64,000 nt of DNA from the IMG/VR virus record IMGVR_UViG_3300035670_000082, positions 36,570-100,569 of that record; one strand, 5' to 3'. The notes under the pieces are model-generated. The model had not been told where the DNA came from. It searched no databases and saw nothing but the letters and a program-made list of their open reading frames with translations. Source of the stretch: a virus. The position numbers were made by a program, and so were the translations under genes. Shown piece after piece: positions 11,929-42,740 of the stretch. The first letter of the stretch is position 1, and the number at the start of each line of letters is the position of its first letter.

Positions 11929-11938
11929 TGTTTCGGGT

Positions 11939-12211: not shown

Positions 12212-12240
12212 ACTTCTCCCCCGTGACAGGGGAACAAAAC

Positions 12241-18642: not shown

Positions 18643-18798
18643 TCATTTATCCGACTGTTTCCGTACCTCTTCATTCGGGCTAAAACGCATGAGAAAATCC
18701 CTTGCGAACTCCCGCTGCTTCTCCAATGGCATCGACCAAAAATCTTTCGGTATCGAAACATTCCTAAATTTCATGTTTCCGTTTTCGTTCTCAGCCAT
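18643..18798 (-). CDS. Small 51-residue protein coupled to the upstream gene
   Basis: Read from ATG 18798 to TGA 18643-18645: MAENENGNMKFRNVSIPKDF, then WSMPLEKQREFARDFLMRFS and a short charged tail. The start lies 8 bp inside the end of the 18791-19651 gene, which favours coupled translation. Short amphipathic helices, no cysteines, no membrane segment. Too short for a family call. The 126 bp between its end and the SNase start hold nothing I recognise. Confidence 0.45.
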   Translation of the reverse strand: MAENENGNMKFRNVSIPKDFWSMPLEKQREFARDFLMRFSPNEEVRKQSDK

Positions 18799-19651
18799 TT
18801 GATGAATCCTCCGTTATCACAAACCTGAATGACAAATCTTCTGATTTGCCAGATTGATTCGGTCTAAATATTCTAGATATCGTTCGTTTCGGTTCAGCGA
18901 AAACTCCGCGCGCGTCATTGAAAAACTCCCAATCAATGACATCTGCACCATCTCCACCGCTGTCTATGAAAGGAGCATTCCAATCTGAAGGCTCCTTCCG
19001 TGCGTCGGCTTCCTTAGCCTCCCAAACCTTGTCCAAAATTGCCACTTCTTTCTGATTTTGTGCTTTGCCAAGAGACGCTGCTTTTGCAATATTTTCGTCT
19101 GTGGTCGGATATATGTCTACGACATCGAGGAAGAATCGCGGCACGCCATCTACGGTTTGCACCCATCCGCCAATCCCGCGCTCACGCGCCCCCGGAAGCG
19201 GATTGCCGAATACTTTGTCACCGTGATACTGCATCCATGCAAGAACTGTTTGAATTGCTTCTTCTTTCGGGTTTCCATCTTTATCCCAAACATCAGAAAC
19301 ATCTCTGCTCAATCCGTGTCTGTTGAGACCTACCGATATCCCTGTTTTTACATCCCCTTCAATATTTCTGTCTCTAGTGAATCCGCCTTTTCGTGCGTCT
19401 GCAATGATTTCCTTAACGCGGTTACGTCTGCGAGCCAAATCTTTCTTGTAACTAGGGGTTTTTTTTCTGAGAAAATTAACCACCGTGTTTACCACTGCTG
19501 GATACGGCATGTTGTCTTCAGTAGAGCCGACGGGTGTGAACATTCCGTCACCATCGCCATCTCTCGGTATACCGGGCTTCCCTCTGCGGAGAAAACCACT
19601 AAATGGTATTCCAAGAAGTTTTACTTTCAGATTTTTGCTTTCGTCAGCCAT
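18791..19651 (-). CDS. DGDGDG-module protein next to the capsid gene
   Basis: About 286 residues from ATG 19651. An N-terminal module at about 10-50 (VKLLGIPFSG, PRDGDGDGMF, EDNMPYPAV) matches that of the 1581 and 4049 proteins. After it come a basic linker (KDLARRRNRVKEI) and a globular domain with NRHGLSRDVSDVWD, TVLAWMQYHGDKVFGNPLPGA, GGWVQTVDGVPRFFLDVVDIYP and LGKAQNQKEVAILD. I do not recognise its activity; the WVQ...FLDVVDIYP then NQxEVAILD order is seen in other phage virion proteins. It is the first gene after the capsid terminator. Probably a capsid-associated protein. Confidence 0.6.
   Translation of the reverse strand: MADESKNLKVKLLGIPFSGFLRRGKPGIPRDGDGDGMFTPVGSTEDNMPYPAVVNTVVNFLRKKTPSYKKDLARRRNRVKEIIADARKGGFTRDRNIEGDVKTGISVGLNRHGLSRDVSDVWDKDGNPKEEAIQTVLAWMQYHGDKVFGNPLPGARERGIGGWVQTVDGVPRFFLDVVDIYPTTDENIAKAASLGKAQNQKEVAILDKVWEAKEADARKEPSDWNAPFIDSGGDGADVIDWEFFNDARGVFAEPKRTISRIFRPNQSGKSEDLSFRFVITEDSSNG
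19502..19624 (-). repeat. DGDGDG module, copy 4 (divergent)
   Basis: Codes for about residues 10-50 of the 18791-19651 protein: VKLLGIPFSG, an 11-residue insert, DGDGDGMF, TPVG, DNMPYP. More diverged than copies 1-3 but with the same order of blocks. Confidence 0.65.
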
Positions 19652-19685
19652 CACTCAATTATCCCATAACAAACATGTCGATATA

Positions 19686-19730: not shown

Positions 19731-19754
19731 ACGCTTACTGCGCTTCAGCCGTTA

Positions 19755-21071
19755 TCAGGCAGGAGCGTTGTCAAACGAGACGGCAACGAATGCCTCAGGA
19801 CGCTTGACAGCGAGTGCGAGACGCTGCTCGGCGAGCACCACAATCGCGTTGCGCACGAAGAAGTCTGCGTGCTGCTCGCTGATTCGGATGCTTGCCTGCT
19901 CACGGTCGTAAATCTGCGCGGCAGTGCCGAACGCACCGACAAGAGCGGTGCCTTCTGCGATTGCCGGCGTGTCCACAACCGGGATGCGCCACAGACGCGG
20001 GGTTCCGCCGAGGGCGACCGAGACAGCAACCAGGTACTGTCCGTTGTCGTCCTTCGACAGTTCGATGTCTTCCCAGTCGTTCGGGTGCATCACGACGCCC
20101 GTCGGCTCGTAGTACGCGAGGAACGACAAGGTGGCTGCGCGACGAATCGCGTCCGCCTTGAGGTCACCCGTCGCACCAGAAGACCAATCGTAGGTCTGGA
20201 TGCCCGTGGTCTGGAGAACACCTTCGAGGTTCTCGCCGGTGCCGTCACCGTTCAGGATTTGCTCGTCCTCAAGAAGACGCAGACCGTACATCAACTCGTT
20301 GTCGATGATGCTACGGAGTTGCGGCTCGTCGGCGAGCACATTGCGGTGCGCTGCTTCCCAGTGGGCAAGCGTGCGAACCGGTGCCTGATGACCAGTGAAC
20401 TTCAAACCAGACTGTGGCTTCGCAGTGAACACTGCGGGCGAACCCGAGCGCTCAGAGACAGGAGCCGCATTGTTGGTCGGCGCGCCAGTGACGGCGGTGT
20501 AACCAATCTGGCGGAAGTACTCAATCACCGCAGCGTTCGTGGTGCGCTTCGGGAAGAGGTCGCGGACGCGACGGGTACGGGTCGGCGAGACCACCATCGG
20601 GTCACGCTGGAACTGACCGAACTGTTCAACCGAGGAAAGCGGCGAAGCAGGACCGGTCGGCATACCCGTGAAGACATCCTTCACGTTGTACACGAACGGA
20701 GCCGGCATGTTCGCGCCGTTTCGACCAGAGGCGAGCGCCTTGTACTCATCGGACGAAAGGAACGCTTCGCCGAGGCTCTTGATGCTCATTCTCTGCTCGA
20801 CCTGCTGAGGCTGTGCATTCGAAGCCTGCGCAACCGACTCAGAGGCAGGAGCCGAAGCCCACTTCTCTGCATCGCGCATTCCCTCAATGCCCTCAATCAG
20901 GCTCTTGATTTCACGGATGTCCGACATATTGCGGTCGAACGCTGACTTTTGTTCGGCTGAAACAACAACAGTGCCATCTTCGACTTTGAACGAGTCGGCA
21001 ATGGTCTTGTTGTCAGCCATCTTTTCGCGAAGTGCGTTCTGCAACTCGCGAAGACGAATGTCGTCTGACAT
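19755..21071 (-). CDS. Major capsid protein (HK97 fold)
   Basis: 438 residues. An N-terminal charged helical region (about 1-80: LRELQNALREKM, MSDIREIKSLIEGIEGMRDAE) resembles a cleavable delta domain. After it comes an HK97-like body: FGQFQRDPMVVSPTRTRRVRDLFP, APVRTLAHWEAAHRNVLAD, YGLRLLEDEQILNGDGTGENLEGVLQT, GVVMHPNDWEDIELSKDDNGQYL, WRIPVVDTPAIAEGTALVG, then EQHADFFVRNAIVVLAEQRLALAVKRPEAFV. This is the typical order of the family. Strong AGGAGG before the ATG. It is last in a long minus-strand head operon, with its own leader and terminator. Confidence 0.93.
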   Translation of the reverse strand: MSDDIRLRELQNALREKMADNKTIADSFKVEDGTVVVSAEQKSAFDRNMSDIREIKSLIEGIEGMRDAEKWASAPASESVAQASNAQPQQVEQRMSIKSLGEAFLSSDEYKALASGRNGANMPAPFVYNVKDVFTGMPTGPASPLSSVEQFGQFQRDPMVVSPTRTRRVRDLFPKRTTNAAVIEYFRQIGYTAVTGAPTNNAAPVSERSGSPAVFTAKPQSGLKFTGHQAPVRTLAHWEAAHRNVLADEPQLRSIIDNELMYGLRLLEDEQILNGDGTGENLEGVLQTTGIQTYDWSSGATGDLKADAIRRAATLSFLAYYEPTGVVMHPNDWEDIELSKDDNGQYLVAVSVALGGTPRLWRIPVVDTPAIAEGTALVGAFGTAAQIYDREQASIRISEQHADFFVRNAIVVLAEQRLALAVKRPEAFVAVSFDNAPA

Positions 21072-21235: not shown

Positions 21236-22588
21236 TTACAGTCGGTGATATCGTTTCACAACCTTGGGGCAACACCCACCCGAATACTTAACCCCCATAA
21301 CACCGTCACCGTAAGCGTCGTCCCTTTTTGCTGACTTCCCGCTCTTGGAAGGATGATTGTCGGGAACCAAGTCGAAATCCCTGCGGGTTCCGCGCTTTGT
21401 GGGCTTGTCAGACTTCATGGATTCAAAGAAATCCGACAAACGTTTTTTCGCAGACGCCTCGCCACCAGAAGAAAGACCGCGTAGATACACAATCTTCGCG
21501 TCCCTCAAATTGGTTCGATGTATCTGCTTGGATACATCAGCATTGTGGCGTCGAACAAGAACAGCGAGGCGGTTCACGGTCTCGCTATCAATTTGTGGAC
21601 TCTTTCGCTTCGGCTTTCTGACAACCTTTTCCTCAATAAAGGATGAATCAACCAAACTCTTGCGACCGCGACTGGGTTTATTGCCTCTCCTGTTTTTCGG
21701 GCTTCCATCATTCCGCAGTTTCATGACTCGGTTGTAATCTGAGCCGTTGGAGCACGGCATCCAAACAGTTTTCCCGTCACGAGCAACATACCTTCGTATG
21801 CCGATACAGCCAAGATTTCTTGCACGGATACGCGCCGAATCAGGATTCGGGAATGTGTCTGGGTCGGTAGACCTGCTGACAAAAGGAACAAATCCTTTTG
21901 TGTCCATTTTCGCTGATACCAAACCGCCGTCAGGAAGTGTCTCAATTCCCGCCACCGGACGCTCACGCAACTTCTCGAATCTTTCCGTAGCAACACAAGG
22001 GGCGTAGTAGGTGACGCCACCAATCTTTATGACTCGCACACCCTTACATCCGCGTCTTTTCGACGCTTCTTCAGCCATCGCCCTGTCCTCGTAATACTCG
22101 CCTGATTTGGTCAACGCCAATTGCGTTCGATGCTCAATCTCGGTGAAACCGTGCATACGGCTCTTCGAAGAAACTTGGTAGTAGTCGTTCTTGCCTTTTT
22201 TCAACGCCTCGAATTCTTCATGAGTTGTGCATGGCATCCACGAACCATTTTCGTGCTGATGGGCGCCTCGACAACCGAGAAGTCTCGCTACGGTGAGAGC
22301 CTGCTCACGAGATGCCACCCTCGCAGCCTTTTCGTTCGGCTTCACTTCACGCTCCAGCGCATTTGGAACTGCCGACTCGGGCATTGGACCCTCGACGGTC
22401 ATACCTCTGTCTAGGGCAACTTCCAATTCTTGTTTGGTTATATCAGAATCGGAGTATTCGTCCTTGAAAGCGGAGAGAAGTTCTTTGGCGTCAGCAGAGA
22501 CAGCACGGAAAGTGGTTTTCCCTTTACCTGTCGTGGCGACGAAATACGGGGAACCGTCACGTTTGCGAACAACGAACGAAGTAGTCAC
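21236..22588 (-). CDS. Protein with three Cys-pair repeats and a shared N-terminal domain
   Basis: 450 residues. Residues 1-70 (FVVRKRDGSPYFVATT ... DITKQELEVALDRGMTVEGPM) match the N-terminus of the giant 27061-31920 protein (ITKRQLDDALDQDFAIEGPV). Then come three repeats of G-C-x-G ... PC: C106/C120 (LLGCRGAHQ...WMPC), C181/C198 (RRGCKGVRV...YAPC), C261/C279 (NLGCIGIRR...WMPC), each preceded by an Ala-rich helix. The C-terminal third is basic and ends with CCPKVVKRYHRL. Probably a virion protein. The cysteine pairs could bind metal or form disulfides. ATGA overlap with the gene upstream. Confidence 0.6.
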   Translation of the reverse strand: MTTSFVVRKRDGSPYFVATTGKGKTTFRAVSADAKELLSAFKDEYSDSDITKQELEVALDRGMTVEGPMPESAVPNALEREVKPNEKAARVASREQALTVARLLGCRGAHQHENGSWMPCTTHEEFEALKKGKNDYYQVSSKSRMHGFTEIEHRTQLALTKSGEYYEDRAMAEEASKRRGCKGVRVIKIGGVTYYAPCVATERFEKLRERPVAGIETLPDGGLVSAKMDTKGFVPFVSRSTDPDTFPNPDSARIRARNLGCIGIRRYVARDGKTVWMPCSNGSDYNRVMKLRNDGSPKNRRGNKPSRGRKSLVDSSFIEEKVVRKPKRKSPQIDSETVNRLAVLVRRHNADVSKQIHRTNLRDAKIVYLRGLSSGGEASAKKRLSDFFESMKSDKPTKRGTRRDFDLVPDNHPSKSGKSAKRDDAYGDGVMGVKYSGGCCPKVVKRYHRL

Positions 22589-22881
22589 TTTTGCTGTTTT
22601 TCCCTTAAGGCGCGAGCGATTTCTGACAACATTTTGAAACCCTCTTCATCCCAAGGAACTTCCTCCCCGAAGGACATCATGGTTGATGTCCCAACATAAA
22701 GCGGATAATTGAAATCTTTATCTTTTTGCGCCAATTCCGAAACTCGTTCAGAATTGACATTGTTCAAAACATACTCTTCGAACTCTGGCGAGGTTGATGC
22801 GCACCTCACCTTTTCTCCGTCGAAACCCACAACAACAGAGTTCCCCATCCCGACCATACCGACCCACATGGTTTTTTTCAT
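22585..22881 (-). CDS. Small hypothetical protein
   Basis: 98 residues: MKKTMWVGMVGMGNSVVVGFDGEKVRCAS at the start, a region rich in Asn/Ser/Lys, and an amphipathic C-terminal helix (FKMLSEIARALREKQQK). Glycine-rich strands at the N-terminus, no signal peptide. It sits between a giant kinase-like gene and the Cys-repeat gene and overlaps the latter as ATGA. Possible chaperone or partner of a neighbour; no family recognised. Confidence 0.5.
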   Translation of the reverse strand: MKKTMWVGMVGMGNSVVVGFDGEKVRCASTSPEFEEYVLNNVNSERVSELAQKDKDFNYPLYVGTSTMMSFGEEVPWDEEGFKMLSEIARALREKQQK

Positions 22882-22908
22882 GATTGCACTCTACCAATCT
22901 GCATAAAT

Positions 22909-25900
22909 TTAACGCTGAAACAGAACATCGCCAAGCCCTCGTGTCTCAAGGATGCGAATAATGGCGTTGACCCGTTTCCTGATTTGGTCAATTCTCTCCG
23001 CAACCTGTGCAGCGCTTAGAGCCTGTTTGTCACCATACATTGCGCCAAATCGTCGTGCCATTTCTTCAAAATCAATAGCCTTAAGTCTGGGAAGAAGTTC
23101 TCTTCCCAACTCGTTCGCTGCTCCAATATCGCGCGCGCCCATTCCCGCTTTTCTATCCATATCGAAAGTCTCCCAATAATTGCGCAACCCGTCCTCGGTC
23201 ACAGTTCGCCCAGGGCTTGCTCGACCAAAATCAATCGGATATGCGACATCGTTCCCGTTTTCATCTTTAAACACCATTCCATTAAACCCATGTCTGTCGC
23301 CAACATTGAGAACAAAATTCGACAAGACATTCAATAGTCTGTCTTTTTTATTGCCTTTGTGATTATAGACGCCGACAACCATTTTCCCTTCAATCATGTT
23401 TCCACCGAAAGGAATAACAATGGTTCTACTTCCGTTTTTGAGTCCGTCAACACGACCACCTTCGCCTGGTGCTCCTAGCATTGCGGACAATTCGGCGCCC
23501 ATAAGTTCAAACATGTTGGATTCGTCGCCGTTATAGCCATCTGGTGGCTTGATAACGAAACCCTCACCGGTGAGGCGTTTCCCGTCATCCGAAACACGGA
23601 AATGCAACCAAGGTGCTGCCGCACTTCCGCTCCTTAGTCGAACGAACTTTTTCCCTTTAAGTTTGTCTCTGAGTTCCTCGGGTATTTCCATGTCGGAAGC
23701 AGAGAGAGCCTGCGCAAACAAGAAGTGATGATACTTCTTTCGGCGGAATGCGTCGTAGTCGATTCCATCCGCGTTAATCACACCCCTAGTAACCAAGTCG
23801 TTGAACACATCTTCGGTTACGAAATCTCCCCAATCCTGTGAACCGTCATGCGACACTCCCTCAAGTGCATCAAACAGGAATTCGTCTGGAACGTTTCCTA
23901 TTTCACCACCATCTTGCAAATATTTAACGGCTTCATCTTTGGTGTTCATGCCGTTTTCGCCAACTTTCACCGTCTTGCCAACAACGACTCCATTTTTGTC
24001 GACGTCACCGAGTGGGGCAACCACATTGTCACGATTCTTGCGTCGCTTTACAAACATGAATCTGTCAGCGAGTTTTCTTCGACCTTGAGGCTGCGGAGAT
24101 TGCGGCGTTGGCGAAGGGGTCTGTCCAGCCTGCGGAGTCTGCGGCTGGTTTACTGGAGGGTTCGCGATATCTCGCCTGATAATTTCTTCTTGCAATCTTG
24201 CGATTCGTCTTTGATTGCTCGCCAGTTCTTTATCTGCGCGCATGACGACGGCAACATTGTCTACATAGCGGTCTTTGACATCATCAGGAAGAATGTCGTA
24301 TCGCAAACCCGTTGGACTATCCAACCCGTAATCCTGTTTCAACCGCTCAATGTTTGCTGTTGCGTCAGATTTGTCTTTTGTTATTCTTTGTATATTTTGT
24401 TGCTGAGCGGCAAGCAGTGCTCTAAGATTCTGATTGTTTACATCGCCAGGTGGACGACGAATCGCATTATCGACGACATCATCTTGAACTTCATTTTCCC
24501 TGTCTCTGCCTCGCATAAGCACACGGAAAAGTTGTCGCGCTTTTGTCTTGGCGTCGTCCGGAAGTTCTCTGAATGCAGTTGATGCTTCCTCGGTGACCGC
24601 CAATGACGGTGGCGATGGGATATCAGCCTGATTCGGTGGAGTGTTCTCCACGGGTTGCTTCGGTGCATCAGCCGGCTTTTTGCGTTGGCGAGGCTTGCGA
24701 CCTTTCGGTGTGAGACCACCCCCACGTTTACGTTTTTCAATTTCTTGATTAACCAAACGACCACGGTTATTGATATTCCCGTCCGCATCGTAGTATCTGC
24801 CAAAACGTCGTTCAAGTTCTGGTTTGTCATTACCGTCGTAATCTGGTTTACGCCAATATGCGCTCTTCGGGAGACCGTTCTTCGGGAAACGGTTATTCAC
24901 ATTTCGGAATGAACGCGAATCGGGCATACTCTCGCCTTCCGCAAGTTCAATCATTTCCTCATCAAGGTTGATTCGCTCTGACGGCTTAGGTTGTCCGCCT
25001 TGTGGCTTGTCTTTCGGAGTTGGTGGTCGTCGAGTCGCTGACTCAGTTGCGATTTCATCAGAAGCGGCACGTCTACGGTTCCTCTTGCGAGCAGGTCTCT
25101 TGGGCTTTGGTGCTTCCGCTTCTGGTGTTTCCCCGGGCGCTGTTCGTGGTGCGCCGGGTTCTTCTATTTCTCTTCGTACACGTCGGCGTTCAGAAAAACG
25201 CAAATCTCTGTCTCGCTCATCTTCATCGCGTGGCGCCCTGCGTCTCCCACGCTCGTTTCTTTCACGCAACCGCTCATTCCTATTGTCTCGCCTTGCTCTG
25301 TCGTTTTCTTCAGCCTCACGGCGCTTACTCGGATTGCCTCTGATGTTCCACTGTCTGCTGTTCGGGTCGTACTCCCATTGGTCGCCCTCATCGTCCGTCC
25401 AAATACGGTTCTTGCCTTCTGGGTCTGGTGCACCTTTTGGTGATTTCGGGTTGCGTAAATCGTCGCCTTTTACTCTTCGCTCTTTCTTTCTCAGGCGGTC
25501 ATTTTCTAAATCGACTTCAGATGCGGGAACCCAAAAACCCTTTTCTTGTTTTCCTGCACCAATAACGTTCGCATCGGGGTTCGGTACCCATTTATAGGGT
25601 TCTCCGTCGCTACCGATAACAATCTCCCCAGGTTCTCTGCCGTCACGCTTCGGTGCGCCGGGTCTAAGGAAATCGTCAAACAGTCCTTCGTCTTCTTCGT
25701 CGGCAGCCGGTACGCGTGGAGGTCTCCGCTCGCCTGGGCGTGGTCGTCTTTCCTCCCCATCTCGCGGTGCTCGTGGTCTCCGTGGCGGTCTCGGAGCCTC
25801 TGGTGTCGGTTCTGATGCATCAGGTGTTTCTGGAGTCGGTTCAACTATGTCTGCTTCGTCTCGCTCTGCTCGCGGTCTGCGTCGTCCGCGTTCTCCTTCT

Positions 25901-26712
25901 GGTCGCGGGCGACGAGGACGCGGTGTTTCCGCATCTGCGTCACCTCTGTCTGGTCTGCTCGGAACATCAACCGAATCAGCATCAGGGCGCGGTGCAGGTT
26001 GACCCTCACCCCACCAAGGACGATTTCCTTGTTCGTTGTATCTTCGATTGCCTTCCGAAAGAACGCCTCGCCAGCCGCGACCAAGTTGACCTGCAGGTGG
26101 GTCACCTCTCTCTTCTCTTTCCTGCGCTTCACGGAGTCGTCGCTCGCGTCGTTCTTGCCTTCTGCGCTTACGCGCCTCTCGTCTTTCGGCTCTTCCGTCT
26201 AGCGGTCTCCCACCATCATCTAAGACAACAGGGGAAGTCTCTGGAGCGTCCACATCATCAAGGACAACTTCTCTCCCTCGTGGCGGTCGTGCTACTCGGT
26301 CGGTTCCTTCTCCGCCATCCAGGACATCGGCGACACCGCGCAAACGGCGCTCTGCCCGACCTGCTTCCGCGTTCCGCTGAAGCCGTCCAGCCATACGCCT
26401 GTTTCGTCTATCTACTCGTCTGCCCCTACGCCTGTCGTCGAGGCTTTCCAATCTTTCACCAATGTTCGTGATGGAGTTTGCAATACGGCGAGCAACGCCC
26501 CACCCACAGTTTCTTCCAAAACGGTCGGTTATCTGACCTCCGTACCGCGTACCAACAGGACATCTCCAACCGCCACGTCTACCCGTCCCAGGTATTGAAA
26601 GTGTCGGGTCCCACAACGCGCGAACACGCTTCACTTCATAAGCGAACGTGGTTTTATTCAGTTCACTTTGGAAGCGTTGCGCTTTATAGTTGATGAGATT
26701 CTTATTCGTCAT
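22909..26712 (-). CDS. Giant cargo candidate with Cys-x17-Cys module and PI3/4-kinase-like domain
   Basis: 1267 residues. The module at about 25-75 holds YEVKRVRALWDPTLSIPGTG and CPVG...ITDRFGRNC (C51, C69). A long disordered stretch (about 110-560) is rich in Arg, Pro and Glu. A block shared with the next giant protein (SRSFRNVNNRFPKNGLP, about 595-625) follows. The C-terminal 350 residues carry kinase-like motifs: FVIKPP (Lys), FELMGAELSAML, DRHGFN at 1139-1144 and IDFG at 1160-1163, the catalytic loop and metal-binding motif of the PI3/4-kinase fold. It could phosphorylate lipid or protein. Lies inside the head operon, so probably packaged. Confidence 0.7.
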   Translation of the reverse strand: MTNKNLINYKAQRFQSELNKTTFAYEVKRVRALWDPTLSIPGTGRRGGWRCPVGTRYGGQITDRFGRNCGWGVARRIANSITNIGERLESLDDRRRGRRVDRRNRRMAGRLQRNAEAGRAERRLRGVADVLDGGEGTDRVARPPRGREVVLDDVDAPETSPVVLDDGGRPLDGRAERREARKRRRQERRERRLREAQEREERGDPPAGQLGRGWRGVLSEGNRRYNEQGNRPWWGEGQPAPRPDADSVDVPSRPDRGDADAETPRPRRPRPEGERGRRRPRAERDEADIVEPTPETPDASEPTPEAPRPPRRPRAPRDGEERRPRPGERRPPRVPAADEEDEGLFDDFLRPGAPKRDGREPGEIVIGSDGEPYKWVPNPDANVIGAGKQEKGFWVPASEVDLENDRLRKKERRVKGDDLRNPKSPKGAPDPEGKNRIWTDDEGDQWEYDPNSRQWNIRGNPSKRREAEENDRARRDNRNERLRERNERGRRRAPRDEDERDRDLRFSERRRVRREIEEPGAPRTAPGETPEAEAPKPKRPARKRNRRRAASDEIATESATRRPPTPKDKPQGGQPKPSERINLDEEMIELAEGESMPDSRSFRNVNNRFPKNGLPKSAYWRKPDYDGNDKPELERRFGRYYDADGNINNRGRLVNQEIEKRKRGGGLTPKGRKPRQRKKPADAPKQPVENTPPNQADIPSPPSLAVTEEASTAFRELPDDAKTKARQLFRVLMRGRDRENEVQDDVVDNAIRRPPGDVNNQNLRALLAAQQQNIQRITKDKSDATANIERLKQDYGLDSPTGLRYDILPDDVKDRYVDNVAVVMRADKELASNQRRIARLQEEIIRRDIANPPVNQPQTPQAGQTPSPTPQSPQPQGRRKLADRFMFVKRRKNRDNVVAPLGDVDKNGVVVGKTVKVGENGMNTKDEAVKYLQDGGEIGNVPDEFLFDALEGVSHDGSQDWGDFVTEDVFNDLVTRGVINADGIDYDAFRRKKYHHFLFAQALSASDMEIPEELRDKLKGKKFVRLRSGSAAAPWLHFRVSDDGKRLTGEGFVIKPPDGYNGDESNMFELMGAELSAMLGAPGEGGRVDGLKNGSRTIVIPFGGNMIEGKMVVGVYNHKGNKKDRLLNVLSNFVLNVGDRHGFNGMVFKDENGNDVAYPIDFGRASPGRTVTEDGLRNYWETFDMDRKAGMGARDIGAANELGRELLPRLKAIDFEEMARRFGAMYGDKQALSAAQVAERIDQIRKRVNAIIRILETRGLGDVLFQR
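26488..26640 (-). repeat. Cys-x17-Cys module, copy 1
   Basis: Residues about 25-75 of the 22909-26712 protein. C51 and C69 have 17 residues between them, with C-P-V-G at the start and T-D before the second Cys. Nearly identical over 45 residues to copy 2 at 31381-31533. Confidence 0.85.
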
Positions 26713-27055: not shown

Positions 27056-27060
27056 AACCG

Positions 27061-33260: not shown

Positions 33261-33345
33261 CCGTACCCTCGCCGTGATAAGCCACACTGGCTGGCTATTT
33301 GATTGTACCTTATTTACAGGTCACGCTAAATGAGCATGATTATGT

Positions 33346-36083: not shown

Positions 36084-36095
36084 CGTCTCTCCGAA

Positions 36096-36347
36096 TCACA
36101 ATGATTCTGTCTGGTTCTCGGACTCTTCTGAAGTTTCTTTGACAGCGACTTCTTCGACGACAGCGGCTTCTTCCACCACAGCAACATTCTCAGGTTCTGC
36201 TGGTGCAACATTTGCCTCTGGTTCCTTCTTCTTGCGTGTCTTCTTCGGAGCCTCAACTTCACGACTCACAACAGGAGTTGGGGTTGGGGCATCACCCTTG
36301 GCGAGTCCCCGCCAAGAGCCTGCGTGTTCCGCGCCGGGTTTCCTCAT
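36096..36347 (-). CDS. Small disordered Glu/Val/Pro-rich protein
   Basis: 83 residues, ATGA overlap with the 36344-37750 gene. Starts MRKPGAEHAGSWRGLAKGDA, then a basic patch (APKKTRKKKEPE) and an acidic repetitive tail (EAAVVEEVAVKETSEESE). Likely disordered. It could be a scaffold accessory or a tether. Co-transcribed with the head genes. Confidence 0.5.
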   Translation of the reverse strand: MRKPGAEHAGSWRGLAKGDAPTPTPVVSREVEAPKKTRKKKEPEANVAPAEPENVAVVEEAAVVEEVAVKETSEESENQTESL

Positions 36348-37750
36348 CGTCCATCCACTCCATCTTGCTCGACGGAAAGCATTTCGAACTCCATCAAATC
36401 GCCGATGAACTTCTTCGCCTCGTCGTCGCTGAGTGTCTTCTCTTCATTCATCCAGTTCTCGGGAATCATGTCTTCCTTGCCGAGGGCGCGAGCACGCTTC
36501 ATGATGTGCTTCTTAGCGGCTTCCTTGTCCTTCGCGCGACCGAAAGCCTGAATTGCGTTCTGCAAGTCAGCCTCGTCAACGATTGGGTAAGAACCATCGG
36601 GGAGAGCCATGCCTTCCTTGGCAAGTTCATCGCGACGCTCATCGCTGTACATGCGCTTCAACGCAAGGTCAGCAACTTCTGCGTCAATGTCGGCAGCCTC
36701 TTCAGGCTCGTACTCGTCATAGCCGAGAACTTCTCCGTCAACACCGACGAACACATCGTATGACTTGCCGTCCACGCCTTCGATTTCGACAGCGTATGCG
36801 TCATAGCCTTCGAACATGTCGGCGTCGACAGCGACAACTTCGCCCTCAATCGACTTAACTGCGATGTTGGCGGCATCGTCAAACGAAATGATTTTCTCGC
36901 CGGGGATTCCCGCAACTTCACCAATCAGGTCTTCGTTGAGAAGGTGCCAACCCATGCACTCTCCGCTGGTTCCGTCAAAGTACGCCTCAATCGGCTTTCC
37001 GTCCTTGCGTTCAATGTCAACGACGAAAATGTCCGACAGGTCTGCGTAGCCAGAATCAAGAATCTTGCCCGAGAACATGTCTTCGGCGATTCCCTCAATC
37101 TCGACAAGTGTTGGCATGTCATCATGCGGAGCGCAACCGCCAGGGCAGTTGGCACACGGTGAACTTCCACCGCCGAACACTTTGCGCTCAATGCCACACA
37201 CGAACGCTTGGTCATCACCTTCGAAAGCGCTCTTCATGCCCATTGAAGCCATACGCTTCTTGCGAGCCTTCTTGCGCTTCTTGAGCATGTCCTCAAGTTC
37301 TGTCCACATTTTTTCTTCGTCTTCGTCGTCCATCATGTCGTCGTCCATCATGTCCGAACCTTCGGCACCGTCTTCCTTTTCGGTGTCCTCCATGTCGTCG
37401 TCGTCTTCGTCGTCGTCCATCATGTCGGCATCGTCAACCATGTTCTCCATGACTGATGCTGGCTTGACCATAGGCTTTTTGCCTTTTTCTGGCATCTGCT
37501 CTTCGTCATCCTCGTCAACGTCCGACGGCAAAGTGTTGCCCATCATCTTGCGAGTCTTCTTCTTCTTCGGGGCGGACACCCACTCGGATGACATTCCGCC
37601 GTAACCCTCACCCTTCACAGAGACAGCCTCGGCGCCGCATTTGCCGCAAACTTTCTCGCCCGGCTTGTAGCCGCACTCTTTCAAATCGAGACTCTTTGCA
37701 CACTTAATGGTGCCGTCTGCGTTCAATCCGACTGTTGGTGTATCTGCCAT
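36344..37750 (-). CDS. Acidic head protein with Cys motifs, PepSY-like repeats and a DUF6582-like end
   Basis: 468 residues from ATG 37750, where AAGGAG lies upstream; the frame is open to ATG 37900. Contains C-x2-C type pairs near the N-terminus (VCGKCGAEAV), a very acidic Asp/Met stretch (about 100-170), a Cys cluster (CANCPGGCAPH), then PepSY-like repeats (IFVVDIERKDGKPIEAYFD, YAVEIEGVDGKSYDVFVGVDGEVLGYD). Near the end is EGMALPDGSYPIVDEADLQNAIQAFG and AKKHIMKRARALGKEDMIPENW, which I recognise as a DUF6582-type region found in phage head operons. Scaffold or core protein is likely from its place after the protease. Confidence 0.65.
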   Translation of the reverse strand: MADTPTVGLNADGTIKCAKSLDLKECGYKPGEKVCGKCGAEAVSVKGEGYGGMSSEWVSAPKKKKTRKMMGNTLPSDVDEDDEEQMPEKGKKPMVKPASVMENMVDDADMMDDDEDDDDMEDTEKEDGAEGSDMMDDDMMDDEDEEKMWTELEDMLKKRKKARKKRMASMGMKSAFEGDDQAFVCGIERKVFGGGSSPCANCPGGCAPHDDMPTLVEIEGIAEDMFSGKILDSGYADLSDIFVVDIERKDGKPIEAYFDGTSGECMGWHLLNEDLIGEVAGIPGEKIISFDDAANIAVKSIEGEVVAVDADMFEGYDAYAVEIEGVDGKSYDVFVGVDGEVLGYDEYEPEEAADIDAEVADLALKRMYSDERRDELAKEGMALPDGSYPIVDEADLQNAIQAFGRAKDKEAAKKHIMKRARALGKEDMIPENWMNEEKTLSDDEAKKFIGDLMEFEMLSVEQDGVDGR

Positions 37751-37948
37751 GTTTTCTGACTCCTTGTATTGCATCGTCTTCACGAGGCAAGACTTTGGAC
37801 TGGAGCATCCGCTACAAGGAGTCGAGCGTTTTTCGCCCGATACCATGCACTGATACTTTGCTGACTTTTGTGGTAAACCTGTTCTAGAAGTATAACTCAT
37901 ATAAGTATTCGCCTGATGCTACTCATACCAAATCGATGTAATCATATT

Positions 37949-40459
37949 TCAGACTTCTAATGATTTTAGTCGAATAACCAATGCCTCCGCTGCTTCATCC
38001 GAAATCGATGCGATGTCACGGATGAGAACGCCGTCCTCGTTCGCAACTGCCTCAATTCCGTGGTAATCGAAGACGGGGTCAAGAGCCTGTTTCAGATTGT
38101 AAACACTTGTGTTTTCGGCTTGGATTAGGTGAGATTTGCTCTCCATATCCTCAGCGCCGCCAGACATCAAGACATCTTGCAGAAGTTGATACGCCTCTTT
38201 TAGGCGCTTCATATTTCGACCGTTGAGCACCCGACCAGCCTTGACATCCACATCGTCTTCCAATTCCTTGACCATGTCCGCCAGTGCAGCCGCCAAGGCA
38301 GCAATCATTTCTTTGCCACCACCGCCACAGGAGCCACCGCATCCACAGCCACCGCCACCAGAACCCTTAAGCGGAGACTCGACCGTAATCCCGTCTTCAT
38401 CCTCGCCCTCCATGACCCAATTGTCGTCACCAGTCATGTAAGAGACGAACTCTGGTTCGGAATTCATGAAGTCCCTAAGCGCACCATAAGCCTTCTCGTT
38501 GGCGTCATCATCGTCGTCTGTTTCGTAATCGTCCATCGGCTTGAAAGCGAGGCGTTCCGCGACTTCTTCCATCATCATGGCATTTTTTTCCTCTGTGCCC
38601 ATATCACCGAATTCGTCAATCACATCGTCTATCGTGAACGAGCCGTCATCTTTCTTGCCGGCAAGTCTCGCAAGTCGCTCGTTCCACTGTGAATCACTCC
38701 AGATGGAACCGTTCTTGATTCCCTTGAGTTTTTTTCGGCAATTCTTCATACCCGGATGATGGCAACCCTCGTTCGGCCAGAGTCCTGTTGTTTCGTGGTG
38801 CAGCCACGCGCAGATGTTGTTCAACGGATACAACTCTGGGTGGTTGGCAAGAATCACTCGACAACGACGGAACCCACCGGGCTTTCGCATAATCGGACGC
38901 CAATAGCGAAGAAGTCTTTCTAGGTTGCCTCTTCGCGGACCGTATCCTCTTGTCCGTGCAGTTACTACTTCCTGAGGGATGAGACCGCCGAGCGGGTCAG
39001 CCTTTTCTGGCATCTTCGGCTTAACACCTTCGGGTATCTGCGGGTCTTCGTCCATGTTGTATCGGTCTATGTATCGACGCTCTTCATCGGAGCCGGAGGG
39101 GACATTGTCGTTGTCCAAGTTCATGTAAACGACTTTTGGCTTTACCCTTGTCGGGTCGCCAAACATGAACTTTCCGTCTTCGTAGTGATAGGAGACTCGA
39201 AGGGTCTGCTTCCCTTCATCTCCTTTATGGTCAAAAATTACGCTGTTTGCATCTGATTCCCGCACTCGGACTGCTCCACCGAACTTTTCTGCAAGCGCAT
39301 AGGCAAGATTTTGCACGCGACCAGCCATCGGATTTTTCGCCGGGATGCCATCGTCGTCGTCTTCGTCGTTATCTTGTTCCCGTTCTTGCATCATCCGCAT
39401 CATGAGTTCTGCGAGTTTCCGTTTTTTGTACTGCTCCATCGCTCGAGCGCGAAGCATTTGCAAAGCCATCGGGTTTTGTGGTTTCGGACCGAACGCAAGA
39501 ATCGCCCGCTTGACATGCATTTTTTCTTCTGCTTTTATTTCGCTGTCATTTTCGTACTGTTCCAAAGCCTTGCTTTGAAGTTCTTCGAAGTCGGCGTCAT
39601 CCTTCTTTTTCTTTTTGGAGTTTTCATATCTTTCCAAAAGGCGACGACCCTTTGCTGCTAGAGCAGCGGCATCTGACCTGTCCTGCGGAACGGGTTCACC
39701 CCACGCTGCTGCTGACAAAGCCAATCTGGTTGGTTTTCCATTTTCGTCCTTCATCGGTCCTGATGGATTCGTGAAGAATCTTGTCAGGAACGAACCCTTG
39801 CGTCTCATTTTTTCGGGGGTGTCCGCGCGTCCCTTGACACCCGGTTTAAGATTTGAACCTTCTGTTCGGTTGAAATGGCGCCGTCCGGCGGCGGTCAAAC
39901 CGCCCTTGGGGTCTTTCAACGGTTGGTCAGCCTTAATGCTGATGGTTCCAGTCAACTGATTGGCGCCATGTAAAACAGGTGAAACCTCGTACAACTCAAC
40001 TTGCTTCAACACATTTGCGTTTTTTGATGGGTCAAAGTCGGCATCAAGCGTCTTGTAGCCAATCGACCACTCCTGCTCTTCCCCGAAGAAGGCGACATCG
40101 GCGAAAGCCTGACGCCCGCGCTCCGATTTCAGGTTGAACTGCACACGGGCATACAAACCACCGATTCCCGCATTCTTCATTTTCGCGGGAAGACGCGGGT
40201 CGGTTCTCGGAACTTCGTAGATTTCCAAGACTTTTCCGATTGGCTCGTTCCAGTTGTGACCCCACACAACGCGAGGCTTTCGTCGCTTTAGGCTTCCGTT
40301 GAACGCCCCCGAGACGATGATGTCGCCGACAGAGTCCTTGTTTCCGATTCCTGCGACGAATGCTTCGATGATGCCTTGTGCTTCATCAATATTGAACTGA
40401 CCTTGGGACGCCTTATATTCGGTGAGGCTTTCCTGTTGTGTGCTTATTGTGTCCGACAT
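37949..40459 (-). CDS. Prohead protease with long C-terminal extension
   Basis: About 836 residues from ATG 40459 (GTG 40471 also in frame). The first 190 residues are an HK97-type prohead protease: EAFVAGIGNKDSVGDIIVSGAF, VVWGHNWNEPIGKVLEI (catalytic His) and EEQEWSIGY (catalytic Ser). Then comes a basic domain (GGLTAAGRRHFNRTEGSNLKP, RKGSFLTRFFTNPSGPM, LALSAAAWGEPVP) like DUF6321, lysine-rich regions, a cysteine/Trp-rich part (CAWLHHETTGLWPNEGCHHPGM), a Gly/Cys run (GGGGCGCGGSCGGGG), and a C-terminal helical domain. Classical enzymes are near 200 residues, so most of this is extra. It likely cuts the capsid and perhaps the tagged cargo. Confidence 0.8.
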   Translation of the reverse strand: MSDTISTQQESLTEYKASQGQFNIDEAQGIIEAFVAGIGNKDSVGDIIVSGAFNGSLKRRKPRVVWGHNWNEPIGKVLEIYEVPRTDPRLPAKMKNAGIGGLYARVQFNLKSERGRQAFADVAFFGEEQEWSIGYKTLDADFDPSKNANVLKQVELYEVSPVLHGANQLTGTISIKADQPLKDPKGGLTAAGRRHFNRTEGSNLKPGVKGRADTPEKMRRKGSFLTRFFTNPSGPMKDENGKPTRLALSAAAWGEPVPQDRSDAAALAAKGRRLLERYENSKKKKKDDADFEELQSKALEQYENDSEIKAEEKMHVKRAILAFGPKPQNPMALQMLRARAMEQYKKRKLAELMMRMMQEREQDNDEDDDDGIPAKNPMAGRVQNLAYALAEKFGGAVRVRESDANSVIFDHKGDEGKQTLRVSYHYEDGKFMFGDPTRVKPKVVYMNLDNDNVPSGSDEERRYIDRYNMDEDPQIPEGVKPKMPEKADPLGGLIPQEVVTARTRGYGPRRGNLERLLRYWRPIMRKPGGFRRCRVILANHPELYPLNNICAWLHHETTGLWPNEGCHHPGMKNCRKKLKGIKNGSIWSDSQWNERLARLAGKKDDGSFTIDDVIDEFGDMGTEEKNAMMMEEVAERLAFKPMDDYETDDDDDANEKAYGALRDFMNSEPEFVSYMTGDDNWVMEGEDEDGITVESPLKGSGGGGCGCGGSCGGGGKEMIAALAAALADMVKELEDDVDVKAGRVLNGRNMKRLKEAYQLLQDVLMSGGAEDMESKSHLIQAENTSVYNLKQALDPVFDYHGIEAVANEDGVLIRDIASISDEAAEALVIRLKSLEV

Positions 40460-40535
40460 AGGTACTACCACAATAAACTATTTGACTGTTCAAAAATGCA
40501 ACACTTTCAGTAAAGTGCCACACAGTTTACTGAAA

Positions 40536-42740
40536 CTAATCGAACCTCAGTCTGAGGCGGCATCGACAGTTGTAGGTGAGCGACGGTGGGGCGAGCGGGT
40601 CGCCGGGGAACCTCAGAATCATGTTGTTCACAACAAAACCCTCACCAAAGTCGACGGTCTTACCTTCCAAGAACTGATGGGTGGCACGAACATTGGGGTC
40701 TTTGCGTGTCAACCATGTCTTGGAGAGACCGCCAGCGTCTTTACCTGAAAGGAAAACACCAGCATTATAGGCAGTCTGAGCCTCATGCTCAGCCATTGCA
40801 CGCTTGCGCTTACGGAGCAGATTAATGAAAATGGCGACAAGGGCAAGCCTCAGGAGAGCGGACTTATCGTCGTCGTCCCCACCAGCAAGAGCAACAAGAA
40901 CGGCAGAAACAATTTCCTCGAATGTTGACTGATTCGCCTGTTGCATTCGCGCAATCTGTTCCTGCGCCATCTTCTCGAGTTCTTCTTCGTCTAGTTCCGC
41001 AGGCATATTGGAGCGCGTAGAAACATATTCCTTCGCCTCGTTGCAAATTGCGACAATCACTGGCTTGATGTCGTCGTTCATTTGCTTATCCCAAACATCT
41101 TTGTCGAAAATCATCTCGGCAGTGAGCGTCCCATTTTGAATTGCTTTCAACGCTTTTTTGCCGTTTGCCTTCTCCATGACAACACGCTGTTGTCTTTCGA
41201 ACAAGCGTTCAAGGCTTCTGTCCAAAATTTCTGTCCATCTGTCAGTGTCGGCATCAGCCTTGCTTTCCAACTGCTCAATGAACTTGCTGTGAATATCGTT
41301 CTGTAAAGATTCAAATTCGCTGAGTTGTTCTGCTGGCGCCATCGCAGTGTTTTCTGGTGAAACTTCTCCGCCCGCTGGTTCAGGTGCCGGTATGGGTGCG
41401 GGGGGCGCTGGCTGTGGCATCGCGGGCGCGCCTTCCATGGGAGGCATTCCCCCTGCGGGTGCTCCCTGCTCTGCTCCGACCATGTCAACTGGTTGTTGCT
41501 GTTCTGGCTTGAACGGCTTTTCCGTGTTGGCAATCGGGGTGAGGTTCGGGTTGGACAACAGTGAGTCAGCGAGTTCTGACTCAACTTTTTTCTTGCCTGT
41601 CGCATCTCGGTATTCGTTGAGCGAAATCAAACCCTGTTGGAACTCGTCCATGTGGTATCGCTCGCGTTCTTGTTTGGCGAGAATCAAAATGGGGATATCT
41701 GAAGTGTCAAAGTCGACATAATATTTGTCGTCGAGTTCGTCGAGGGCGCGAGCAAGAGTGTGCAGATGGGGAACCATTGTTTCCATCCAGAAAACTCTTA
41801 ACTCTTCTGATGCGTTGCTAAATGTTCTGCCCGCGGCATTTCCTATGACTGACTCTGGAACGCCGAATGCCGAAAGGATTTCTTCTTTCTGTATTTGGCG
41901 CATTTGCGTATATGCGGCATCACGCGGTGACGCTGACGTGTCGACATAATCAACGCCATCGCTAGATGCGATAACGGTTGTCGCCCCCGTCTTTGTGATG
42001 TTTCCACGGAATCTAGAGCGCAACTCCGCCTTGTCGTCTTCCTCCATGTCCCCTCGGACGACAAGCAAACCGCCAGGTCTTCCATCGTTGAGCATGTAGT
42101 TGCGGTTGTACATCTTGGAAAGGTTTTCCAACTCAATTGCGATTCCCGCTGCTTCCATTGGTGTGATTGAGAGATACGGGTCTAATGGGTGTGGTCTGCG
42201 AATCCAGCACACATCTTCTGGCTTGAGGCGAACTTTTGTTCCGTTGTGCATGTCAACTTCGAATCCCGAAACAAACTTTCTTGCATCGGGTATTGGTGCG
42301 GTGTGTTGCGGAGGGAGAAGATGCAGGGCAATCAAGCGTCCGTCGTTGCCTCGAATCTTTTCGATGAAGACTCCGCGGCTGCTCATCAGTAGTTGAGCCG
42401 AAAGTCTGTAGCGGAAAATGAACGAGTTTTCCCCCATGTTGGATTTGCTGTTGAGCAATTCCATGATTGGTCTGTCTGCTTTTACCCGCTCGCCTCTTTG
42501 GTCATTGTTTTTTCGCAACATGATGGGCAGGCGTGATTGGTTGCCGGCAATCGCATCAATGCATCGGAACACCCAAGTAACTTTTTGGTGTCCTTCTCGG
42601 TATGCGCGTTCAATATCCCAACCGTCTCGGTATGGGCGTCCGACTTTGCCCATGTCGTAGACGACGGGCGCGCCAGGGTTCAGCACTTTTTCTTCTTGCG
42701 AGTTCGCAAGATTTTTATTATTCGTGTTGTTCCAAGCCAT
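40536..42740 (-). CDS. Portal protein fused to a MuF-like C-terminal domain
   Basis: 734 residues. The N-terminal part is a phage portal: YREGHQKVTWVFRCIDAIAG, LLPPQHTAPIPD, VCWIRRPHPLDPYLSITPMEAAG, YNRNYMLNDGRPGGLLVVRG, SAFGVPESVIGNAAGRTFSNASEELRVFW. A Pro/Met/Ala-rich linker (about 430-490) follows. The last 80 residues (WLTRKDPNVRATHQFLEGK, FVVNNMILRFPGDPLAPPS, YNCRCRLRLRF) match the MuF minor head domain, normally a separate protein. Dodecamer at the head vertex. TAATG overlap with the membrane-protein gene. Confidence 0.88.
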   Translation of the reverse strand: MAWNNTNNKNLANSQEEKVLNPGAPVVYDMGKVGRPYRDGWDIERAYREGHQKVTWVFRCIDAIAGNQSRLPIMLRKNNDQRGERVKADRPIMELLNSKSNMGENSFIFRYRLSAQLLMSSRGVFIEKIRGNDGRLIALHLLPPQHTAPIPDARKFVSGFEVDMHNGTKVRLKPEDVCWIRRPHPLDPYLSITPMEAAGIAIELENLSKMYNRNYMLNDGRPGGLLVVRGDMEEDDKAELRSRFRGNITKTGATTVIASSDGVDYVDTSASPRDAAYTQMRQIQKEEILSAFGVPESVIGNAAGRTFSNASEELRVFWMETMVPHLHTLARALDELDDKYYVDFDTSDIPILILAKQERERYHMDEFQQGLISLNEYRDATGKKKVESELADSLLSNPNLTPIANTEKPFKPEQQQPVDMVGAEQGAPAGGMPPMEGAPAMPQPAPPAPIPAPEPAGGEVSPENTAMAPAEQLSEFESLQNDIHSKFIEQLESKADADTDRWTEILDRSLERLFERQQRVVMEKANGKKALKAIQNGTLTAEMIFDKDVWDKQMNDDIKPVIVAICNEAKEYVSTRSNMPAELDEEELEKMAQEQIARMQQANQSTFEEIVSAVLVALAGGDDDDKSALLRLALVAIFINLLRKRKRAMAEHEAQTAYNAGVFLSGKDAGGLSKTWLTRKDPNVRATHQFLEGKTVDFGEGFVVNNMILRFPGDPLAPPSLTYNCRCRLRLRFD

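What the first reader, a model, noticed from the sequence alone, without database searches (positions are those of the whole stretch)
18791..42740. A large block of tagged, multidomain cargo-like genes sits between prohead protease and capsid genes
The normal head order portal, protease, scaffold, capsid is interrupted by about 14.5 kb (21236-36083) coding for a run of proteins of 400 to 1600 residues with enzyme-like ends, interspersed with small genes. All are on the same strand, many with ATGA overlaps, and they share modules with each other. I infer that they are loaded into the procapsid and delivered with the DNA, as known for T4 Alt and the N4 virion RNA polymerase, but with many different enzymes and common tags.
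Basis: partly seen in the sequence, partly recalled or inferred. Interest (0 to 1): 0.9.

Follow-up and report, generated by a model that had tools for sequence, protein, structure and literature searches.

The report
Likely tagged cargo of phage heads
A virus of bacteria carries, among its head-building genes, a block of large enzyme-bearing proteins that share a short tag, and its relatives have similar blocks with other enzymes, which suggests (but does not prove) that the virus particle is loaded with an exchangeable set of enzymes and injects them with its DNA.

Summary
Between protease/P3 and capsid genes of this contractile-tailed, probably actinobacterial phage lie five large and four small genes on one strand. 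Four large proteins share a short motif, RCPxGTxxGGxxTDxxxxxC (tag 1). Two end in a HipA/PI3K-like kinase with catalytic motifs intact; one has a zincin-like HExxH. In 25 of 25 IMG/VR relatives where portal and capsid genes were both placed, 14-36 kb separate them, and tag 1 is in all 31 uncultured blocks read. Payloads differ between tagged carriers; relatives add ArdC-N, MPTase-PolyVal, UvrD, NUDIX, Zeta and DnaJ domains, some fused to the prohead protease. Motif-intact kinases are in 14 of 31 blocks; 14 others have only a catalytically dead homologue. A second tag marks some proteins without tag 1; cultured actinophages share a third between ADP-ribosyltransferases and head proteases. Lys-Ala/Ser motifs like those of protease and capsid protein precede many tags. 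Best reading: head-packaged, protease-trimmed, injected effectors, i.e. polyvalent-type proteins spread over tagged carriers, working like P1 Dar or T4 Alt. Loading, cleavage and injection are inferred, not shown. A new variant of a known kind. Unread virion mass-spectrometry data for Gordonia phage GMA6 (PMC4524720, S5 Table) are the nearest direct test.

The parts
40536..42740 (-). Portal protein with C-terminal MuF domain (734 aa)
   Evidence: Pfam Phage_portal 7.9e-51 and Phage_Mu_F 1.2e-7; phrog_2662 3.7e-89
37949..40471 (-). S78 prohead protease with DUF6321 and long C-terminal extension (840 aa); N-terminal EYK|AS motif, K20
   Evidence: Peptidase_S78 1.9e-11, DUF6321 9.7e-30; [FY]K[AGS] near the N-terminus in 31 of 31 proteases listed
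36344..37900 (-). P3, acidic 518-aa protein; its C-terminal module is the C-terminus of the protease in GMA6 and ChisanaKitsune; candidate scaffold
   Evidence: P3C profile
36096..36347 (-). P4, 83-aa small gene before P5
33585..36083 (-). P5, tagged, 832 aa, zincin-like HExxH
   Evidence: HExxH in 19 of 25 P5-class proteins; Pfam names no enzyme here
35796..35900 (-). Tag 1 of P5 (residues 62-96)
   Evidence: profile hit E 2e-18
34590..34604 (-). HExxH motif of P5 (residues 494-498)
33346..33588 (-). P6, 80-aa small gene between P5 and P7
31917..33287 (-). P7, tagged, 456 aa; most widely kept tagged class; the C-terminal kinase-like domain found in 24 of 29 P7-class proteins is not found here
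   Evidence: A2
32703..32813 (-). Tag 1 of P7 (residues 159-195)
   Evidence: E 5e-19
27061..31920 (-). P8, tagged, kinase at the C-terminus, 1619 aa; N-terminal domain (3-69) shared with P12
31360..31470 (-). Tag 1 of P8 (residues 151-187); preceded by NFK|ARS at K115
   Evidence: E 6e-21
27079..28038 (-). HipA/PI3K-like kinase domain of P8 (residues 1295-1614)
   Evidence: AlphaFold2 model mb46c35475f97, mean pLDDT 87; VIA-align Z 13.7 CotH, 12.5 PI4KIIalpha, 11.3 CtkA, 11.2 HipA
26702..27055 (-). P9, 117-aa small gene between the two kinase genes
22909..26712 (-). P10, tagged, kinase at the C-terminus, 1267 aa
   Evidence: kinase profile E 3e-52
26467..26577 (-). Tag 1 of P10 (residues 46-82); preceded by NYK|AQR at K10
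   Evidence: E 8e-21
22969..23979 (-). Kinase domain of P10 (residues 912-1248)
22585..22881 (-). P11, 98-aa small gene before P12
21236..22588 (-). P12, 450 aa, DUF3721 repeats; no tag 1; in relatives this class grows to 3927 aa with NUDIX, DnaJ, Zeta
   Evidence: PF12518 3.7e-18
19755..21071 (-). Major capsid protein, HK97 type, predicted cleavage K98|S99
   Evidence: Phage_capsid 1e-44; K at the site in 59 of 69 sequences, [ST][LIV]G in 69 of 69
18791..19654 (-). P14, 287 aa, DGDGDG motif weakly like tag 2
   Evidence: tag-2 profile E 0.001

Best explanation
The block encodes effector proteins that are made late with the head proteins, sorted into the procapsid by short tags, trimmed by the S78 prohead protease at Lys|Ala/Ser sites shortly before the tag, and injected with the DNA through the contractile tail. 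In this phage two kinases and probably a metallopeptidase, in relatives also nuclease, helicase, nucleotide-hydrolase, ArdC-like and Zeta-like domains, would then disable host functions or protect the incoming DNA. The small genes between the cargo genes may be partners (chaperone- or immunity-like). Shown: gene order and its recurrence, tags and where they occur, kinase fold and catalytic motifs, different payloads on one carrier class. Inferred: loading, cleavage, injection and targets.
For: Portal and capsid genes are 13.8-36.5 kb apart in 25 of 25 relatives where both were placed, of 34 records searched, with a common class order; no two of the 30 relatives' capsid proteins compared exceed 95% identity. 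Tag 1 is in 31 of 31 uncultured blocks read; among called ORFs of two near-whole records it is in block proteins only (4 in G001, 2 in 135 kb of G008); of the 80 capsid loci, 44 hold a tag in the stretch fetched, and the 62 tagged ORFs tested (of 63) lie upstream of the capsid gene on its strand. One carrier, different loads: the P5 class holds HExxH in 19 of 25 and a kinase in 4 of 25; a motif-intact kinase sits on P5, P8 or P10 carriers in 14 of 31 blocks, and D[RK]HxxN is kept in 24 of 27 kinase-like domains outside class P7. Matrices learned from protease N-termini or the capsid site, not from cargo, put their best site in the pre-tag window more often than length predicts: protease matrix 20 of 29 P7 (3.9 expected) and 15 of 33 P8/P10 (1.7); capsid matrix 11 of 25 P5 (1.4) and 10 of 29 P7 (3.9). 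In cultured actinophages one tag is shared by ART toxins, large block proteins and head proteases. Precedent: 30 N-terminal residues of P1 DarB send a reporter into the capsid, and the N-terminus of DarA is cut by the prohead protease (PMC9024508, PMC12810830; passages).
Against: No virion proteomics was read; loading and injection are untested. The matrices fail for other classes: protease matrix 3 of 25 P5 (1.4 expected) and 1 of 11 P12 (2.2); capsid matrix 2 of 33 P8/P10 (1.7). K[ST][LIV]G is not enriched in block proteins as a whole (25 seen, 24.3 expected); the looser K[STAGN][LIVFM]G is only mildly so (110 against 87). The kinase is not universal: 14 of 31 blocks have only the P7-class homologue, which lacks the catalytic motif in 24 of 24, and 3 more lack D[RK]HxxN in P8; the P7 domain could be structural. 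The tag region of P7 is unfolded in a poor model, so no binding mode is suggested. Tag 2 also occurs in a protein outside the block in G008. G018 has 44 kb of sequence beyond its capsid gene on the block side and yet no portal match. Sequences are related, so counts are not independent events.
Confidence: 0.72

Rival explanations
1. The tagged proteins are mainly internal head-structure or scaffold proteins; the enzyme-like domains are secondary and nothing is injected.
For: P7 is in 29 of 31 blocks (the other two are truncated) and its kinase-like domain is catalytically dead in 24 of 24; P1 DarA/Hdf are both structural and part of an injected system (PMC12810830, passages).
Against: Outside P7, 24 of 27 kinase-like domains keep the catalytic motif and 19 of 25 P5-class proteins have HExxH; relatives carry clear conflict-type enzymes; block proteins reach 4736 aa.
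Confidence: 0.16
2. The genes are polymorphic toxins or morons inserted in the late operon and act from inside the producing cell, e.g. at lysis or against rival phages, without being packaged.
For: Conflict-type domains; a small gene between most cargo genes recalls toxin-immunity pairs.
Against: Tag 1 was found only in the head block in the two near-whole records searched; in cultured phages a tag is shared with head proteases, which must enter the procapsid; protease-like sites before tags.
Confidence: 0.09
3. The block is an assembly artefact or a chance run of open frames.
For: None found, except that the genome is metagenomic.
Against: A second record of the same virus, 133,214 b, matches the 100.6-kb record at 99.2-100%, and the layout recurs in contigs with capsid proteins no more than 95% alike.
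Confidence: 0.01

Closest known systems
Polyvalent proteins of phages (Iyer et al. 2017, PMC5512222; passages read)
   Same: Multi-domain conflict proteins encoded near portal/capsid genes and predicted to be packaged and injected; a relative of this phage carries ArdC-N and MPTase-PolyVal on a 4736-aa protease fusion, and one of 25 further long block proteins each matched these families.
   Different: Here the activities are spread over several separate carriers with shared short tags in a recurring order; the kinases are HipA/PI3K-like (the passage read describes another kinase type, and 'HipA' does not occur in that text).
Phage P1 Dar system / DarB capsid-targeting sequence (PMC9024508, PMC12810830; passages)
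   Same: Large internal head proteins, N-terminal packaging signal, prohead-protease trimming of DarA, co-ejection with DNA, contractile tail.
   Different: No sequence relation was tested; here one signal serves several cargo classes and a second marks others; S78 protease with a Lys|Ser-type capsid site (P1's capsid site is E120|S121).
T4 Alt and internal proteins (passages in PMC5512222, PMC9503650)
   Same: Enzyme packaged in the head and injected to modify host proteins.
   Different: Kinases and a peptidase motif, no ADP-ribosyltransferase found in the window's block; a large gene block.
Portal-to-capsid genes of cultured actinophages (ChisanaKitsune, ScarletRaider, GMA6, DalanDe, Cantare, Gilgamesh)
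   Same: Nearest relatives by portal and capsid among phage records; large genes, incl. RNA ligase, VIP2-like ART and HNH annotations, between portal and capsid; their own shared N-terminal tag.
   Different: That tag (VR[TD]...GxPxGTxI) shows no detectable homology to tag 1; tag 1 and the kinase profile found nothing significant in the ORFs over 150 aa of five such phages.
MuF polymorphic toxins (PMC5576092; passages)
   Same: Head-associated delivery module joined to variable C-terminal effectors.
   Different: The MuF domain here sits in the portal, not on the cargo.

Membership tests
Polyvalent proteins | several disparate catalytic domains in one polypeptide | tested here: inconclusive
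   Window proteins show at most one recognisable enzyme domain or motif each; some relatives show many in one chain
Polyvalent proteins | encoded with portal/capsid genes of terminase-portal phages | tested here: met
   terminase at 42995-44299
Polyvalent proteins | packaged and injected | not testable with these tools
   needs virion proteomics; GMA6 S5 Table not readable here
HipA/PI3K-like kinases | kinase fold | tested here: met
   P8 domain, pLDDT 87; the 50 rows shown are kinases of this broad group, Z 13.7 to 9.4
HipA/PI3K-like kinases | catalytic Lys, DRHxxN and metal-binding Asp | tested here: met
   P8 and P10 keep them in alignment A1 (roles of the residues recalled); D[RK]HxxN in 24 of 27 non-P7 and 0 of 24 P7 members
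Zincin metallopeptidase (P5) | HExxH motif | tested here: met
   19 of 25 P5-class proteins incl. the window
Zincin metallopeptidase (P5) | zincin fold and third ligand | not tested
   no model made; Pfam found no peptidase family in P5
MuF polymorphic toxins | N-terminal MuF domain on the effector | tested here: not met
   among the ten window proteins scanned, MuF is in the portal protein only
HK97-type head with S78 protease | S78 protease and Phage_capsid-family capsid protein | tested here: met
HK97-type head with S78 protease | capsid N-terminus cut by the protease | not testable with these tools
   conserved K|[ST][LIV]G in 59 of 69; cleavage itself needs experiment; likeness to the HK97 site is recalled

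The most novel reading that the evidence does not exclude
Actinobacterial phages use a small code of interchangeable sorting tags (at least three without detectable kinship: RCPxGTxxGGxxTDxxxxxC, FDPxAxDGDxDGxVQEGTxFERP and VR[TD]...GxPxGTxI), often placed just after a prohead-protease site, to load a modular arsenal of effectors into the head, among them HipA/PI3K-like kinases and metallopeptidases. In the longest blocks about 35 kb, a fifth to a quarter of records of 138-160 kb, lie in this interval, and the prohead protease itself can be a carrier.
Probability: 0.45. Interest if true: 0.87.

Novelty: new variant of a known kind. Interest (0 to 1): 0.75.

Why it matters
If true, the tags are addresses for putting proteins into phage heads and into actinobacterial cells, and the cargo lists show which host functions these phages attack first. 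HipA/PI3K-group kinases injected by a phage would be an unexpected use of that fold. The tags also give a simple way to recognise likely virion cargo among giant unknown proteins of environmental phages.

Tried and rejected
tblastn of the whole P8 against 50,697 phage records found nothing at E 0.01, a tag-2 segment nothing at E 10, and a tag-1 segment only seven records at E 7-10, taken as chance. Rfam gave nothing at its gathering thresholds; ARAGORN no tRNA. Exact K[ST][LIV]G sites are not enriched in block proteins (25 against 24.3). That the tags are one family was not supported where tested: tag 3 against tag 1 and tag 2 against tag 1 gave probabilities of about 2% or less; tag 3 against tag 2 was not tested. 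The fold of P7 stays open: the model is poor (pLDDT 62) and Foldseek's best PDB match is E 0.1. A tblastn with the 1092-aa P5 homologue of G025 gave 420 phage records, the ten listed at E 6e-7 to 4e-4 over 14-30% of the query; I did not follow them up. Literature searches aimed at such a block or tag in actinophages listed no paper that I recognised as describing it; the library holds open-licence PMC papers only, and I judged by listings.

Choices that affect counts. Eight of these have about 5-27 kb upstream of the capsid gene and probably end inside the block; G018 does not and is unexplained. I read blocks of the 25 with a portal and of 5 of the 9 without (G003, G011, G018, G020, G025), plus the window, i.e. 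31; G002, G030, G033 and G034 were not read this way. Genes were called by a greedy longest-first rule, which lost some true genes (the window's capsid gene was displaced by an antisense frame and added by hand). Class labels are best BLAST matches to window proteins. The patterns were chosen after looking; the matrices were not trained on cargo.
Full report
WHAT THE WINDOW IS. The window is positions 36570-100569 of a 100,569-base IMG/VR virus record. A second record of 133,214 b (IMGVR_UViG_3300036770_005816) is the same virus at 99.2-100% identity. It has a contractile tail (sheath 51990-53453, baseplate wedge 60941-62122), terminase, primase/helicase, ribonucleotide reductase and a PAPS reductase. 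WhiB was found in 14 of 20 virus records searched, twice in this virus; of 14 control genomes only Corynebacterium glutamicum rang, which points to actinobacterial hosts. Among phage records its portal and capsid proteins are nearest to actinophages: Streptomyces Gilgamesh, Brevibacterium Cantare, Gordonia Chidieberevirus and GMA6.

THE BLOCK. Down the minus strand: portal+MuF, S78 protease with a C-terminal extension of some 660 aa, acidic P3, then P4 (83 aa), P5 (832), P6 (80), P7 (456), P8 (1619), P9 (117), P10 (1267), P11 (98), P12 (450), capsid protein, P14. Junctions from portal to P12 are tight (-11 to 64 bases), with 164 bases before the capsid gene. P8 and P10 are unusually charged (38% and 37% K/R/D/E against a mean of 22% for called ORFs over 200 aa).

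TAG 1. P5, P7, P8 and P10 share RCPxGTxxGGxxTDxxxxxC. Among called ORFs of the 133-kb record its profile finds these four and no other; in 135 kb of a 137-kb relative it finds two, both in the block. Of the 80 capsid loci kept (306 found), 44 hold a tag in the stretch of at most 10 kb fetched upstream; 36 do not, some because the P12-class gene alone fills that stretch, some because the contig ends. The 62 tagged ORFs tested, of 63, lie upstream of the capsid gene on its strand. A pattern-based scan with the P7 class found 323 related stretches in IMG/VR (80 kept) and one in 84,980 species genomes of bacteria and archaea, a contig filed under a Phycisphaerae MAG; the scan can miss distant relatives.

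THE LAYOUT RECURS. Of 34 records searched, the capsid gene was found in 34 and the portal gene in 25; in all 25 they are 13.8 to 36.5 kb apart. Reading 30 blocks of relatives plus the window shows a common order: portal, S78 protease (547-4736 aa), P3, P5 class, P7 class, P8/P10 class, P12 class (up to 3927 aa), capsid. By label, P7 is in 29 of 31 blocks (the other two are truncated), P5 in 25, P8 in 22, P12 of 300 aa or more in 26; G016 is rearranged, and unlabelled long proteins fill some slots. No two of the 30 relatives' capsid proteins compared exceed 95% identity. Small genes sit between most cargo genes and fall into many unrelated clusters tied to position (107 small ORFs).

PAYLOADS. 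The C-terminal 335 residues modelled from P8 form a kinase (mean pLDDT 87). VIA-align gives CotH kinase Z 13.7 (rmsd 4.1, 246 aligned), PI4KIIalpha 12.5 (4.2, 233), CtkA 11.3 (4.6, 216) and HipA 11.2 (4.3, 222); a profile search of PDB sequences is led by CtkA at E 0.003; Foldseek's best is CtkA at 1.1e-4. A kinase-like domain was found in 51 proteins of 31 of 31 blocks (48 of the 51 with tag 1), on P5, P7, P8 and P10 carriers and one unlabelled protein. But outside P7 24 of 27 keep D[RK]HxxN, in P7 0 of 24; motif-intact kinases are thus in 14 of 31 blocks, 14 blocks have only the P7 form, and G008, G011 and G018 have a P8-class domain without that motif. The P7 members were drawn in by iterated profiles at 11-16% identity in A1 and are a distant, probably inactive branch. 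P5 carriers hold HExxH in 19 of 25 and a kinase in 4 (G006 has both). Pfam adds, in relatives: on a 4736-aa protease fusion Sigma70 region 4, KTSC, UvrD, RNase_T, ArdC-N and MPTase-PolyVal; on a 3927-aa P12-class protein NUDIX, DnaJ, Zeta and a sub-threshold GNAT; among 25 further long block proteins Zeta in 5, DnaJ 3, NUDIX 3, RNase_T 3, UvrD 2, ArdC-N 1, MPTase-PolyVal 1. Of the 21 relatives' proteins scanned matched no Pfam family at E 0.01.

TAG 2. Aligning 25 long block proteins, chosen for length, exposed a second conserved segment, FDPxAxDGDxDGxVQEGTxFERP. At E 0.001 its profile marks 12 of 27 protease-class, 9 of 26 P12-class and 11 of 20 unlabelled proteins of 300 aa or more, some of them only by the DGDGDG core; one weak P5 hit is the only overlap with tag 1. 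It is not confined to the block: one 1344-aa protein elsewhere in G008 has it, an 823-aa protein of this virus (window 1581-4052) is a marginal hit, and P14 a weak match.

PROTEASE-LIKE SITES. The capsid proteins have a conserved K|[ST][LIV]G (K in 59 of 69, the rest in 69 of 69), like the HK97 site as I recall it. The S78 proteases have [FY]K[AGS] near the N-terminus in 31 of 31 listed. Matrices from these, applied to cargo, place the best site of the protein in the pre-tag window of up to 88 residues as follows (expected by length in brackets). Protease matrix: P7 20 of 29 (3.9), P8/P10 15 of 33 (1.7), P5 3 of 25 (1.4), P12 (first 300 residues) 1 of 11 (2.2). Capsid matrix: P5 11 of 25 (1.4), P7 10 of 29 (3.9), P8/P10 2 of 33 (1.7), P12 4 of 11 (2.2). 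Both pooled: P5 7, P7 14, P8/P10 10, P12 6. So different classes resemble different model sites; cleavage is a prediction.

CULTURED ACTINOPHAGES. Gordonia, Brevibacterium and Streptomyces relatives also keep large genes between portal and capsid: RNA ligase, VIP2-like ART, HNH by annotation, and a protein of more than 4600 aa in Gilgamesh. Five of them lack tag 1, but in three the ART and the next protein share a segment of 28-32 residues. Its family, VR[TD]...GxPxGTxI (tag 3), was read in 14 proteins of 9 phages: five ARTs, large block proteins, a 1633-aa S78 protease of DalanDe and a head protease of Taptic. A database search with 50 residues of it at E up to 10 found 26 records: 13 Gordonia records of the ChisanaKitsune/GMA6 kind, 9 Mycobacterium records (5 annotated as head protease, 4 hypothetical), 2 of the Stormageddon ART, and 2 (VanLee, E 1) elsewhere. 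Before this tag, E-x-K-[AGV] stands in 9 of 9 proteins of phages with an S78 protease and in 0 of 5 of the others (protease types; Stormageddon's was not tested and only part of Taptic's was). That rule was seen after the fact and the phages are related.

COMPARISON. Iyer et al. 2017 (passages) describe polyvalent proteins, predicted packaged, encoded with portal-terminase phage genes; this is that idea distributed over tagged carriers. In P1, passages read state that 30 N-terminal residues of DarB suffice for capsid targeting and that DarA's N-terminus is removed by the prohead protease. In SPN3US, eight head proteins lose N-terminal propeptides to the prohead protease (passages). Hence the mode has precedents; what I did not find described (searches; listings only) is the shared-tag scheme, the recurring multi-carrier block, and HipA/PI3K-like kinases as one of its loads.

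VERDICT. The sequence finding is solid and general in this phage group; the mechanism is the best-supported inference (0.72) and awaits virion proteomics, for which data on GMA6 exist in a table that I could not read.

Noticed in passing
window 36096-36347, 33346-33588, 26702-27055, 22585-22881: A small gene sits between or before most cargo genes here and in relatives; 107 small ORFs fall into many unrelated clusters tied to position, as partner, chaperone or immunity genes might.
   Followed up: partly
L110:2234-2551, and blocks G013, G015: Three relatives carry a thioredoxin-like gene (WCGPCK motif, read by eye) between portal and protease; the two cysteines of tag 1 might be redox- or metal-linked.
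   Followed up: no
G018 (L155) around the protease gene: A long relative with a normal block but no portal match and unrelated ORFs just before the protease; divergent portal or a mis-join.
   Followed up: no
L152:403-3681, residues about 298-482: The P5 homologue of G025 has an extra N-terminal part that weakly matches hypothetical proteins of many proteobacterial phages (420 records at E 0.01 or better).
   Followed up: no
window 47657-48790 +: PAPS reductase auxiliary metabolic gene (phrog_2302, 4.7e-74).
   Followed up: no
window about 6943-7137 +: One of the two WhiB genes of the virus lies in the window (G001 60010-60204).
   Followed up: partly
G008 8824-12858 + (1344 aa; in L158): A protein outside the head block carries tag 2 at two places; possibly another virion protein.
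   Followed up: no
L250:13925-18826 and L108:2973-16853: Cultured phages with giant genes here: DalanDe 'capsid maturation protease' of 1633 aa with tag 3 at its start and S78 at 1219-1296; Gilgamesh protein of over 4600 aa.
   Followed up: partly
L247:2982-5633: Gordonia phage GMA2 Orf10, annotated head maturation protease, has sub-threshold 2H/Acb1-like stretches at about 741-865.
   Followed up: no
L164: The only bacterial-genome hit of the P7 class is a 12-kb contig filed under a Phycisphaerae MAG, perhaps a mis-binned phage.
   Followed up: no
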